From: Bacteroidales bacterium
Lineage (GTDB): Bacteria; Bacteroidota; Bacteroidia; Bacteroidales; UBA932
Direction of reading: 5' to 3'
Length of the DNA: 34,831 bases
Assembly: GCA_017429765.1 (NCBI GenBank)
Contig: JAFROJ010000066.1
Location: 1-34,831, forward strand
Below are positions 16,438 through 19,496 of the stretch, piece by piece. Under the pieces are notes generated by a model. That model ran no database searches, had not been told where the DNA came from, and worked only from the letters and a program-made list of their open reading frames with translations. The position numbers were made by a program, and so were the translations under genes. The stretch's first letter is position 1; each line of letters begins with the position of its first letter.

Positions 16438-17532
16438 CTATAAGCTGATCCTGAGACCGGCGCCGATTGTTAGCATCAAGGGGTTCTCCGTCCTGTAGGT
16501 TAGCAGGGCGGGGTTCTCCGGCTTGAAGTACCACGACAACTCTGGCGCCATGAATATTCCGATGTTATCGGAAATGTCATACTGTACACCGACATCCGCC
16601 ATAACAGACCAGTTAATCCTATTGTCCTGAACGGTCTTCCCGTTATATCGGGCGAAAACACAACGGTCAACCTTGCCTCCCGCACCGGTCCGGATCGAGA
16701 ACCTACCGTTTTTTATAGTGACCCATTCTAACTTCAATGGAATCCCTAAATAATAAACGGTTTGTCTCTTGGCTGTCTGTTTATCGTCTGGCAGTGTGAA
16801 TACTGACTTATAAGATGACAGCTCAAGTCCCGAAGTCAGGGCGAGTTTGTCACTTAACGAGTAACTGACATCTATTCCGAAAGTCAAAGGTAAAGAATGG
16901 TCGGCGTTCATATTCGCGCCAGGGGCTATTATTGAAATTGATCCTCCTGGAGTGGAAAGGTAAGGTTGATCGAAAGGAGCGCCATCGACGGAAACAGATC
17001 TTCTCAATCCATTAAGATGTGGAGTGACAGAGAAGCGTCCGTTGGTTTTTCTACTGACAGTCAGATAATCATTTTGGAATTCATCCCTTCTATTATCCTC
17101 TATAGTGTTTTCCTCGTTTTCCGCCGGGAAGCTATCGTTATCATCTTCTTCATCCTCAACGGTTTCCTTTTCAAGGAGGGTGAGAGATGTGTCAGCCGAA
17201 CGCACAATGTTATTTGTCCGCTCCAAGTGACTCGCTGGTGCGGTCAGCATCTCATCTGATTCAGGGATAACTGCTTCTGATGACAATGATAAGGGGGAAG
17301 ATGACAATACGTTTTCCTGCTTGATGATGGTTTCGTCTGCCTGATGAATAAAGAAGATTGACACAATGGACGCCACCGCCGTCGTTGTGAGCAAAATATA
17401 AGATAATGCCGACAAGCGCCGTCGTCTCCTATTGGAGAGATACATCGCTTCGAAGACTTCCCAGTCGTCCGAGGGAAGTTGAGCTTCCGTATCTTTAACG
17501 CGGCCCCGTATTATGTCAATCCATTCTTCCAT
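16438..17532 (-). CDS. Single-helix protein with C-terminal outer-membrane-type beta-barrel, candidate trans-envelope anti-sigma factor
   Basis: Protein of 364 aa with an unusual order of parts. Residues 1-39 are hydrophilic, contain DDWEVFEAMY, and end in five arginines (35-39). A transmembrane helix spans about 41-62, with the positive charges placing the N terminus in the cytoplasm. A long linker (63-165) is rich in Ser, Glu and Asp, very acidic at 119-151. From about 165 the sequence alternates polar and hydrophobic residues as in outer-membrane beta-barrels, with GIDVSYSLSDKLALTSGLELSSY and a C-terminal strand LTIGAGLRISL. It starts three bases after the stop of an ECF sigma gene, the usual place of an anti-sigma factor. 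The region is AT-richer than the rest of the window. I know of no assigned function; the anti-sigma role is inference. Confidence 0.75.
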   Translation of the reverse strand: MEEWIDIIRGRVKDTEAQLPSDDWEVFEAMYLSNRRRRRLSALSYILLTTTAVASIVSIFFIHQADETIIKQENVLSSSPLSLSSEAVIPESDEMLTAPASHLERTNNIVRSADTSLTLLEKETVEDEEDDNDSFPAENEENTIEDNRRDEFQNDYLTVSRKTNGRFSVTPHLNGLRRSVSVDGAPFDQPYLSTPGGSISIIAPGANMNADHSLPLTFGIDVSYSLSDKLALTSGLELSSYKSVFTLPDDKQTAKRQTVYYLGIPLKLEWVTIKNGRFSIRTGAGGKVDRCVFARYNGKTVQDNRINWSVMADVGVQYDISDNIGIFMAPELSWYFKPENPALLTYRTENPLMLTIGAGLRISL

Positions 17533-17535
17533 AGT

Positions 17536-18099
17536 TTACCGATTATTCTCATAATACGCTTTTATCATGTTAGCTAACATCTTCTTTGCTTTGGCTAAAG
17601 AAGAAGATGATGTCTTTTCCCGGATCCCCAGGATCTCCGCTATCTCTTTATGGGAGAATCCGTCGATGCAGAACATGTTGAAAACTATTCTGTTAGAATC
17701 GGGAAGTCTCGAAATGAATTGTTGCAATACCGGAAGAGGTATGTGTCTTACTTCATCTATCTCGGGGATAACCACATTCGACATTTCCTCTCCAAGAGCG
17801 GAGACTTCCAGTTTATTATCTTTCCGCAAACGGTCAATCGCCATATTCATGGCGATTCTTGTCAGCCATGAATAAAGAGATCCCCGGCCTTGATAACGAA
17901 ACTGATGAATCTTCTGGAGAGCCCGGATCATCGTGTCATGCATAATGTCCGTCCCTTCTATTGGGCCATTGGAGTAGCGTGAGCAGAACGAGGAAAGTCT
18001 AGCCGCATATCGACTATACAGCTCCTTCCTGGCGGCGCTGTTTCCGTCAGCGCACAAAGACGCCAGTTCCTTCTCGTCTATCTCAGAAATGTTTATCAA
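17536..18099 (-). CDS. ECF-type RNA polymerase sigma factor (island)
   Basis: Sigma-70 family protein of 187 aa. Region 2 (about residues 22-95) includes IEGTDIMHDTMIRALQKIHQF and GRGSLYSWLTRIAMNMAIDRLRK. Region 4 (about 125-180) includes LPDSNRIVFNMFCIDGFSHKEIAEILGIREKTSSSSLAKAKKML, a helix-turn-helix. The start appears to be TTG at 18099; no in-frame ATG occurs upstream and the next one falls inside region 2. The upstream region carries TAGCCGTATT-N13-CGTTAT, also found ahead of the divergent serpin gene, which suggests autoregulation and control of the serpin. The next gene on its strand, three bases away, encodes the helix-linker-barrel protein. Confidence 0.93.
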   Translation of the reverse strand: MINISEIDEKELASLCADGNSAARKELYSRYAARLSSFCSRYSNGPIEGTDIMHDTMIRALQKIHQFRYQGRGSLYSWLTRIAMNMAIDRLRKDNKLEVSALGEEMSNVVIPEIDEVRHIPLPVLQQFISRLPDSNRIVFNMFCIDGFSHKEIAEILGIREKTSSSSLAKAKKMLANMIKAYYENNR

Positions 18100-18112
18100 T
18101 CTCTCTATTCGT

Positions 18113-18141
18113 ATAACGTGATTATTTCTGTAATACGGCTA
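18113..18141 (-). promoter_or_regulatory. Predicted ECF-type promoter of the island sigma operon
   Basis: On the minus strand TAGCCGTATT (18141-18132), 13 bases, then CGTTAT (18118-18113). The same two words with the same spacing stand in front of the serpin on the other strand. The CGT in the downstream element is typical of -10 elements read by ECF sigma factors. Transcription would start a few bases before the TTG start codon. Confidence 0.65.
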
Positions 18142-18176
18142 AAAGATATAGATTTTCTTAATATGATAGCCGTATT
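18132..18176. repeat. Inverted repeat formed by the two divergent ECF promoter elements
   Basis: Perfect 10-base arms AATACGGCTA (18132-18141) and TAGCCGTATT (18167-18176) are separated by 25 AT-rich bases. The arms are the upstream elements of two back-to-back promoters. A regulator binding site is an alternative reading, but the conserved CGTTAT on each outer side favours promoters. Confidence 0.8.
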
Positions 18177-18195
18177 TCGGGAATTCAGGCGTTAT
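18167..18195 (+). promoter_or_regulatory. Predicted ECF-type promoter of the serpin gene
   Basis: TAGCCGTATT (18167-18176), 13 bases, then CGTTAT (18190-18195). It duplicates the sigma-operon promoter exactly in both words and in spacing, whereas most of the spacer bases differ. It predicts a leader of about 28 bases before the serpin ATG at 18231. Confidence 0.65.
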
Positions 18196-18230
18196 GTTGA
18201 TGACGATATGATTCATGAGTGTCCGCGATT

Positions 18231-19496
18231 ATGAAAATGATGATAAATACGTTATCTCACTCGCTCCTCGCTGTAATGGTGATCGCTCTCTCAGGATGTG
18301 AGAAGGACGACACGATACCGGCGGATGAGCTTGTTGAAAGGAAGGATCTCGTCATGACGAGATCTGAGTTGGAGTTCATACAGGCGAACAACGACTTCGC
18401 CTTCGAACTCTTCAAGAATATGCCGGAGAGATTTGACGGTGGTGACTTCGTGATCTCGCCCCTATCTGTGACTTTTGACCTGGGGATGGTTGACAATGGG
18501 GCCAAGGGGGAGACCTTTGATGAGATAAACAAGGTTCTTGGATATAAGGAAAGCACCGTGGATGGCTTGAACTCTTTCTGCCAGTCAATGATGAGGCAAT
18601 CGGTGGAAGTGGACCCTTCCACGACCATCGAGATAGCGAATGCCGCAGTTGTCAACAACAAATTAGCTCCGCTTAAGGACAGTTTCTCAAAAACCGTCAA
18701 GTCTTTCTATGACGCGGAGATTGTCAACAAGGATTTCTCCAAGGATGACGTGAGGAAGTTGGTCAACGACTGGTGTGACAAGAAAACCCATGGGATGATA
18801 AAGGAGTTGCTTAAGGACAAGGTTTCTCCGGCTGACTATGCCCATTTCCTGAACGCGGTCTATTTCAAGGGAGTATGGTCCAGTCAATTCAAGAAGAGCG
18901 AGACAAAAGAAGAGAAGTTCACATGTGAGAACGGAAGTAAGAAGACGGTCAACATGATGCGTCAAAAGGGTAAGTTTCAATTATCCTCCGATAGAACAGC
19001 CTCGTTGTTACGAATGCCTTACGGGAATGGCGCGTTCAATATGACGATACTTCTCCCTAAACAGGGAAAGACGCTTGATGATGTGATAAAAGGACTCGAT
19101 TGGGCTTCTTGGAATGATTCATTTAAAAATACGGGTATCGCTGAGGTGGATGTTAAGATCCCAAGGTTCGAGACAGAGACATATTCGGAATTGGTAAAAC
19201 CTCTGGAACAATTGGGAATCCACAGAGCTTTTGACAGTCAGATGGCTGATTTCTCCCTTATGACAGACGAGGCGGTGTGCGTGACGGATATCCATCATAA
19301 AGTCAGGATTAAAGTTGATGAGCGTGGCTCAGAGGCGGCCGCGACATCAGATGTGGTGGTGGCTATGTTGACATCAACAGGGGCTGGTACAAGCCAGCCG
19401 ACTTTAGAGTTCCATGCCGACCATCCTTTTCTCTATGTCATCACGGAAATCAGTTCCGGGGCCATCTTCTTTATAGGCCAATACACAGGGAGGTAA
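18231..19496 (+). CDS. Serpin-family protease inhibitor, lipoprotein
   Basis: Serpin of 421 aa, a suicide inhibitor of serine or cysteine proteases. Residues 1-22 are a lipoprotein signal with lipobox LSGC and acylated Cys at 23. The next residues, EKDD, resemble the Lys/acidic surface-export signal known for Bacteroidota lipoproteins, so it is probably on the cell surface. The serpin fold covers about 55-421, with NDFAFELFKNM, FVISPLSVTFDLGM, FLNAVYFKGVW and the closing HPFLYVI. The reactive loop keeps the inhibitory hinge pattern GSEAAATS (366-373). Counting from P17 (E364), P1-P1' would be L380-T381, pointing to chymotrypsin-, elastase- or subtilisin-like targets. ATG 18231 is preferred over a GTG at 18219. 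It shares a promoter motif with the divergent sigma operon. Confidence 0.95.
   Translation: MKMMINTLSHSLLAVMVIALSGCEKDDTIPADELVERKDLVMTRSELEFIQANNDFAFELFKNMPERFDGGDFVISPLSVTFDLGMVDNGAKGETFDEINKVLGYKESTVDGLNSFCQSMMRQSVEVDPSTTIEIANAAVVNNKLAPLKDSFSKTVKSFYDAEIVNKDFSKDDVRKLVNDWCDKKTHGMIKELLKDKVSPADYAHFLNAVYFKGVWSSQFKKSETKEEKFTCENGSKKTVNMMRQKGKFQLSSDRTASLLRMPYGNGAFNMTILLPKQGKTLDDVIKGLDWASWNDSFKNTGIAEVDVKIPRFETETYSELVKPLEQLGIHRAFDSQMADFSLMTDEAVCVTDIHHKVRIKVDERGSEAAATSDVVVAMLTSTGAGTSQPTLEFHADHPFLYVITEISSGAIFFIGQYTGR

What the first reader, a model, noticed from the sequence alone, without database searches (positions are those of the whole stretch)
16438..19496. Candidate new system: ECF sigma factor, trans-envelope helix/beta-barrel protein and a co-controlled surface serpin
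Three genes form a self-contained island: an ECF sigma gene, a gene three bases downstream whose product has cytoplasmic residues, one membrane helix, a long acidic linker and an outer-membrane-type beta-barrel, and a divergent serpin lipoprotein. Seen directly: gene order, spacing, domain pattern and matching divergent promoters. Known: ECF sigma factors are usually held by a membrane-bound anti-sigma factor encoded next to them, and serpins inhibit proteases. Inferred: the barrel protein spans both membranes and senses an outside event, possibly cleavage by a host or competitor protease, which frees the sigma factor to raise serpin production on the surface. I do not know of a described system with this layout.
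Basis: partly seen in the sequence, partly recalled or inferred. Interest (0 to 1): 0.85.

Follow-up and report, generated by a model that had tools for sequence, protein, structure and literature searches.

The report
Trans-envelope sigma switch controlling serpin
A gut bacterium carries a known kind of switch that reaches from the cell surface to the inside of the cell, and DNA evidence from related bacteria indicates that here its job is to turn on a protease inhibitor of the serpin family.

Summary
The trio is real: an ECF sigma gene (17536-18099, -), three bases downstream a protein with one membrane helix, acidic linker and likely C-terminal barrel (16438-17532, -), and a divergent serpin lipoprotein (18219-19496, +). 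The barrel protein is not a new layout: it matches the published Dma (dual membrane-spanning anti-sigma) family. What I found no description of is the serpin as its target. The divergent promoters share CCGTATT-N13-CGTTAT, with no other exact or one-mismatch copy in the genome. The genome has a second sigma-Dma-serpin operon. A serpin lies beside sigma/Dma in 39 of 80 named Dma loci fetched with this Dma, and in 13 of 80 serpin loci from the order. All 11 divergent loci there carry matching head-to-head boxes of another sequence (0 of 300 shuffles); that box also precedes 9 of 66 unlinked serpins against 1 of 232 other genes. Sigma control of the serpin is thus well supported by sequence. What the barrel senses, including protease cleavage, is untested. 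Most sampled serpins of the genus are not next to such a switch. New variant of a known switch; no structure model was obtained.

The parts
17536..18099 (-). ECF sigma factor gene (187 aa, TTG start as called); Das-like
   Evidence: Pfam Sigma70_r2/r4_2, TIGR02937 2.2e-25; exact start uncertain, the promoter-like box ends only 14 nt upstream
16438..17532 (-). [quoted passage not shown]
   Evidence: architecture, alignment A3 of 45 members, three paralogous sigma-Dma pairs in the genome
17404..17532 (-). cytoplasmic N-terminal segment (residues 1-43), predicted sigma-binding part
   Evidence: W4 invariant, L19 and P20 invariant in A1 and nearly so in A3; binding not tested
17347..17403 (-). single membrane helix (residues 44-62)
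   Evidence: hydropathy maximum 1.97, +5 on the N-terminal side
16441..17037 (-). outer-membrane beta-barrel region (about residues 166-364; limits are my estimate)
   Evidence: sub-threshold Pfam OMP_b-brl (190-326) and OMP_b-brl_2 (207-324) matches; conserved C-terminal block
18219..19496 (+). serpin lipoprotein gene (425 aa from GTG; likely start ATG 18231)
   Evidence: PF00079 4e-99; best solved-structure match 5ncs, E 7.4e-72, named only Serpin; entries named miropin at 5.3e-64
19320..19370 (+). serpin reactive-centre loop from P17 (E368) to about P1 (L384), hinge GSEAAATS
   Evidence: script; register by analogy with alpha-1-antitrypsin (recalled), so P1 may be off by one or two
18167..18198 (+). 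ECF-type promoter of the serpin gene (TAGCCGTATT-N13-CGTTATGTT)
   Evidence: matrix score 17.1, best in window; exact pattern
18110..18141 (-). ECF-type promoter of the sigma-Dma operon (TAGCCGTATT-N13-CGTTATACG)
   Evidence: matrix score 14.0, second best in window; exact pattern

Best explanation
A sigma/anti-sigma switch of the Dma type whose dedicated output is a surface serpin. At rest the N-terminal segment of the Dma protein holds the ECF sigma factor at the inner membrane, while its linker crosses the periplasm to a barrel in the outer membrane. A change at the outer membrane or surface releases sigma. Sigma then transcribes its own operon and, from a matching divergent promoter, the serpin, which is exported as a surface lipoprotein and irreversibly inhibits proteases. 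Shown by sequence: gene order, anatomy, shared promoter, recurrence of trio plus promoter in other genera. Inferred from published Dma/Das genetics: sigma holding and release. Inferred only: surface location and inhibitory activity of the serpin. Unknown: the signal.
For: Anatomy. Only two exact promoter copies in the genome, head to head between the genes; a matrix from other genomes' sigma upstreams ranks them 1 and 2 of the window. Second sigma-Dma-serpin operon in the same genome. Adjacent serpin in 39 of 80 named Dma loci (from 44 and 47); L175 repeats the divergent layout with both promoters (16.0 and 19.4), and in L173 the serpin is convergent yet has its own promoter copy (19.2). In the order 13 of 80 serpin loci have it within 400 bp; all 11 divergent regions have boxes on both strands, 0 of 300 shuffles. 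The box precedes 9 of 66 unlinked serpins against 1 of 232 other ORFs, p 6.7e-6, and was absent before sigma in all 20 fetched Dma loci without serpin. Inhibitory-type hinge in 63 of 64 linked serpins, 99 of 131 unlinked.
Against: No expression or binding data. In the genus 67 of 75 serpin ORFs are not adjacent, and of the unlinked ones only two have a promoter score of 14 or more. The C29 and C36 Dma pairs have other lipoprotein neighbours. The barrel is below Pfam cut-off and no fold was obtained. The GCAAC pattern was written after viewing the divergent loci, so 11 of 11 is not an independent test; the unlinked-serpin count is. Two of three co-directional order loci (L267, L329) have no such box. 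The matrix can score high by chance or inside genes: 17.2 within the upstream gene of an operonic serpin (L211). A crude script found an acidic pair just after the first cysteine in only 15 of 64 linked serpins, so surface export is not shown for the group. Two-mismatch sites in the genome (27) barely exceed the control (21), so no further targets can be named.
Confidence: 0.75

Rival explanations
1. Protease-sensing feedback loop: an outside protease cuts or disturbs the barrel's exposed loops or linker, sigma is released, serpin is made and inhibits that protease.
For: Dedicated pairing with an inhibitor. Precedent of the same logic in B. [quoted passage not shown]
Against: No sequence evidence for a cleavage site or for protease sensing; induction of the related P. 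vulgatus pair looks like a response to envelope stress (PMC9308784, passages).
Confidence: 0.3
2. General outer-membrane stress response in which the serpin is one protective output, the signal being membrane damage by toxins or misassembly rather than a protease.
For: Related P. vulgatus pair is induced by the toxin BcpT (sigma gene 33-fold) and partly protects against two toxins; NigD lipoprotein next to the C36 pair, NigD1 being a known Dma1 output.
Against: The exact promoter occurs only at sigma and serpin in this genome, which suggests a narrow regulon.
Confidence: 0.4
3. Housekeeping of the cell's own surface proteases: the serpin restrains self-made C10-type or secreted proteases, and the switch reads export load.
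For: A third serpin of this genome lies next to a C10 peptidase.
Against: That serpin has no Dma next to it and no promoter site (score 4.9); none of the three further window genes scanned around the trio is a protease.
Confidence: 0.15
4. Chance neighbours: serpin and sigma-Dma merely lie side by side.
For: Most sampled serpins in the genus are not linked.
Against: Twin promoters, recurrence in four gene arrangements, box before unlinked serpins.
Confidence: 0.03

Closest known systems
Dma/Das systems (Dma1-Das1, Dma2-Das2 of Bacteroides thetaiotaomicron)
   Same: sigma gene and an anti-sigma with N-terminal sigma-binding part, one helix, tether and C-terminal barrel; das2 rises when dma2 is deleted; a NigD neighbour at the C36 paralogue, NigD1 being a Dma1 output
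   Different: reported outputs are NigD1, vesicles, PULs and BT_1555-1557; the word serpin does not occur in PMC13088901
EcfO-Reo and M0N98_03760-61 (B. fragilis, P. vulgatus)
   Same: sigma plus anti-sigma predicted to span the periplasm with an outer-membrane barrel (PMC9308784 passages)
   Different: regulon tied to toxin protection or oxidative stress; serpin has 0 occurrences in that text and in PMC13114119
Dma3 of B. theta (sigma domain fused to Dma)
   Same: a fused sigma-Dma ORF stands next to a serpin in L118
   Different: the window pair is two genes
B. breve serpin with protease-inducible two-component system
   Same: serpin operon next to a regulator that responds to protease (PMC8012564 passages)
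   Different: a two-component system in an actinobacterium, not sigma/anti-sigma
Miropin (Tannerella forsythia serpin)
   Same: entries named miropin are among the four best solved-structure matches, E 5.3e-64 and 6.6e-64; the best, 5ncs (7.4e-72), is miropin by recall
   Different: regulation of miropin not examined here

Membership tests
[quoted passage not shown]
   conserved segment with invariant W4 in alignments; binding not testable
Dma family | single transmembrane helix | tested here: met
   residues 44-62, positive on the inner side
Dma family | long disordered tether | tested here: inconclusive
   about 100 residues, net -18, poorly aligned; disorder not computed
Dma family | C-terminal outer-membrane beta-barrel | tested here: inconclusive
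   OMP_b-brl hits below cut-off; relatives L267 and L118 pass the PF13568 cut-off of 27 (31.8 and 28.2 bits), L266 and L120 give no barrel match at all; no model obtained
Dma family | encoded next to an ECF21-group sigma factor | tested here: inconclusive
   ECF sigma gene 3 bases upstream; assignment to group ECF21 not tested
Dma family | sequence relation to B. theta Dma1/Dma2 | not tested
   their sequences were not at hand
Serpin family | serpin domain by sequence | tested here: met
   PF00079 332.8 bits against 27
Inhibitory serpins | flexible hinge with small residues P15-P9 | tested here: met
   GSEAAAT; the hinge rule is recalled
Inhibitory serpins | covalent inhibition of a protease | not testable with these tools
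   none
Surface lipoproteins of Bacteroidota | lipobox and export signal C-X-K-(D/E)2-X | tested here: met
   LSGC-EKDD in the sequence; the motif is that of Capnocytophaga (PMC5080379 passages), those of other genera differ, and location itself is untested

The most novel reading that the evidence does not exclude
A widespread Bacteroidales defence circuit in which a barrel anti-sigma factor works as a protease tripwire: outside proteolysis of the barrel or tether releases sigma, which deploys a serpin on the surface and on vesicles, closing a negative feedback loop. The signal would be the very activity that the product inhibits.
Probability: 0.28. Interest if true: 0.85.

Novelty: new variant of a known kind. 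Interest (0 to 1): 0.62.

Why it matters
What Dma-type switches sense is left open in the Dma2 paper (discussion), and the outputs reported there are diffuse. A branch with one dedicated output of known biochemistry, a protease inhibitor, points to a testable class of signals and gives a simple reporter. It would also mean that gut and rumen Bacteroidales regulate antiproteases, as Bifidobacterium breve does, by a quite different machine.

Tried and rejected
Rejected: that the layout is undescribed. Rejected: chance neighbours. Rejected: that all serpins of the genus belong to the system. Rejected: that the GCAAC box is a general Dma feature (0 of 20 Dma loci without serpin; seven of these show a GCAGTATTTTT element instead).

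Led nowhere: NCBIfam gave no name for the barrel protein; a PDB profile search of the Dma alignment gave three weak, irrelevant hits; a direct comparison with B. theta Dma1/2 was not possible; the serpin tree gave 27 changes of linked/unlinked state, but it is a FastTree tree, contig ends count as unlinked, its rule for linked is looser than that (it counts L340, where no Dma was found), some loci are repeats of one another, and it cannot tell gain from loss. Literature searches for a serpin together with anti-sigma, sigma or ECF terms or with Bacteroidales operons listed no paper that by title and opening of the abstract deals with such a link; (barrel anti-sigma terms) listed none. Subscription papers and preprints are mostly outside that library.
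Full report
WHAT IS THERE. The window lies in a 2.36-Mb Bacteroidota genome of 75 contigs. A locus from a genome of the same genus (L058, G012) is 100% identical over 3507 bases to L248, a record named Candidatus Cryptobacteroides onthequi, so the window's genus is taken to be Cryptobacteroides. 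The sigma gene (17536-18099, -), the barrel protein (16438-17532, -) three bases after it, and the divergent serpin (18219-19496, +) are as described. The barrel protein has 43 residues, a helix at 44-62 with net +5 before it, about 100 residues of net charge -18, and a C-terminal region with barrel matches below Pfam's cut-off. The acid linker is not a general trait: it ranges from -33 to +17 in the 19 proteins compared. The serpin keeps the inhibitory-type hinge GSEAAATS and a lipobox-like LSGC followed by EKDD, which fits the surface export signal C-X-K-(D/E)2-X found in Capnocytophaga (PMC5080379, passages).

THE SWITCH IS A KNOWN KIND. The published description of the Dma family is an N-terminal sigma-binding part, one helix, a long disordered tether and a C-terminal barrel, encoded next to an ECF21 sigma gene (PMC13088901, section read). 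The same design was described in P. vulgatus, where the toxin BcpT raised the sigma gene 33-fold and the regulon gave partial protection (PMC9308784, passages). The window's genome has at least four sigma-Dma pairs: C54 (window), C40, C29 and C36; a fifth, weak and partial Dma match on C66 (E 9.3e-7) was not followed. The C36 pair lies beside a NigD lipoprotein; NigD1 is an output of Dma1.

THE SERPIN LINK IN THE GENUS. The C40 pair is followed, 26 bases on, by a serpin in the same direction. Of 61 genomes of the genus, 45 have a serpin. I fetched 69 regions around the longer matches, leaving out short fragments at the foot of that list. With three regions of the own genome they hold 75 serpin ORFs, of which 8, in 7 genomes, lie within 400 bp of a sigma or Dma gene; a ninth (L135) is about 650 bp from the Dma. 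One linked locus has sigma and Dma fused (L118).

NAMED LOCI. A scan of named genomes with the Dma alignment confirmed 98 places and kept the best 80. Of these, 39 have an adjacent serpin and two more (L223, L224) a serpin farther off. They partly repeat the genus set (L196 = L083, L226 = L081, L176 = L046) and were chosen by likeness to the window's own Dma group, so 39 of 80 is not a rate for Dma proteins at large. In 37 of the 39 the serpin follows Dma in the same direction. L175 has the window's divergent layout with both promoters. In L173, the closest by E-value, the serpin is convergent and has its own promoter copy.

PROMOTERS IN THE GENUS. Between the window's genes, CCGTATT-N13-CGTTAT stands once on each strand, pointing at serpin and at sigma. 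There is no other exact or one-mismatch copy in the genome; the 27 two-mismatch copies are close to the 21 of the reversed-pattern control. Upstream regions of sigma in several other genomes of the genus share GACGTATT-N13-[CT]GTTTAT. The matrix ranked the window's two sites first (17.1, serpin) and second (14.0, sigma); it also found a site before the C40 (20.3) and C29 (14.9) sigma genes and none before C36. Among serpins not linked to Dma, two scored 14 or more (L094 19.3, L116 14.6), against 0 of 405 other ORFs, whose maximum was 13.6. L094 is 54% identical to the window serpin. One operonic serpin (L211) had a 17.2 site inside the gene before it, by chance or as an inner promoter.

BEYOND THE GENUS. 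Serpins occur in 130 of 294 genomes of the order, 128 over the cut-off. I fetched 80 serpin regions from the upper part of its capped list, from 76 genomes; two of them (G223, G194) I had already seen to be near a Dma by comparing. In 13 of 80 a serpin lies within 400 bp of sigma or Dma (in L329 only the sigma was found). Ten of the 13 are divergent like the window; an eleventh, L288, is divergent with one glycosyltransferase gene between. These 11 fall in 7 coded families and 9 coded genera. All 11 have [AC]GCAAC-N15-19-C[AG]TC on both strands; none of 300 sets of shuffles gave a single region with both. I wrote this pattern after reading those regions. Independent of that, the box precedes 9 of 66 unlinked serpins and 1 of 232 other ORFs of 250 aa or more (Fisher p 6.7e-6). 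Of the three co-directional loci, L302 has a box between serpin and sigma, and L267 and L329 have none. In 20 further Dma loci without serpin, none had the box before sigma. The promoter sequence thus differs between groups while the pairing of serpin and sigma promoters stays. This is the strongest evidence for co-control.

SERPINS. In a pooled set of 195, 64 count as linked by a looser rule (50 co-directional, 13 divergent, 1 convergent). A hinge was recognised in 63 of 64 linked and 99 of 131 unlinked; small residues at P12-P9 in 59 of 64 and 97 of 131; an acidic pair close after the first cysteine in 15 of 64 linked. On a FastTree tree the linked state changes at least 27 times, with the limits given under Tried and rejected. 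The best solved-structure matches are 5ncs (named Serpin) and entries named miropin.

HOW IT PROBABLY WORKS. Dma holds sigma; a change at the outer membrane frees it; sigma transcribes its own operon and the serpin; the serpin appears at the surface and blocks proteases. Co-control is supported by sequence. Holding and release are carried over from B. theta and P. vulgatus. The signal is unknown. A precedent for protease-induced serpin exists in B. breve, with a two-component system next to the serpin operon (PMC8012564, passages). Induction of the P. vulgatus pair fits envelope stress, so I rank general outer-membrane stress a little above a protease tripwire.

LIMITS. No fold was obtained after 16 attempts on a busy machine. 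The barrel rests on sub-threshold matches and on architecture. Membership in Dma by direct sequence comparison, and the ECF21 label, were not tested. The sigma start codon is uncertain.

Noticed in passing
L118:4454-6034 (-), L061:1495-3189 (-), L071:1495-3198 (-): Sigma and Dma fused in one open frame, as reported for Dma3 of B. theta; L118 has a serpin about 60 bp downstream.
   Followed up: partly
L120:4463-5815 (+): Barrel anti-sigma candidate with a different N-terminal part (no Pfam match), between a sigma gene and a serpin.
   Followed up: no
L014:310-3234 (-), contig C33 of the window's genome: A third serpin directly downstream of a C10 peptidase with an inhibitor prodomain; no Dma nearby.
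   Followed up: partly
L274, L289, L303, L311, L321: A lytic transglycosylase (SLT) gene lies next to the sigma-Dma-serpin group in five of six divergent order loci in which one such neighbour was scanned (L301 had no match).
   Followed up: partly
L346, L349, L351-L354, L357: Seven of 20 Dma loci without serpin share another element before sigma, GCAGTATTTTT followed by CATTTA-like letters in most: a further promoter dialect.
   Followed up: no
G000 C46:33841-33951 and C37:25-135 (L004, L005): Serpin C-terminal fragments with equal scores near the ends of two contigs, perhaps a further serpin gene broken by the assembly; the letters were not compared.
   Followed up: no
L328:6741-7676 (-): The only non-serpin ORF with the GCAAC box lies two genes upstream of a serpin in the same direction, possibly its operon start.
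   Followed up: partly
G000:C66:19739-19909 (+): A weak partial Dma match (E 9.3e-7, N-terminal part) that may mark a fifth Dma-like gene of the window's genome.
   Followed up: no
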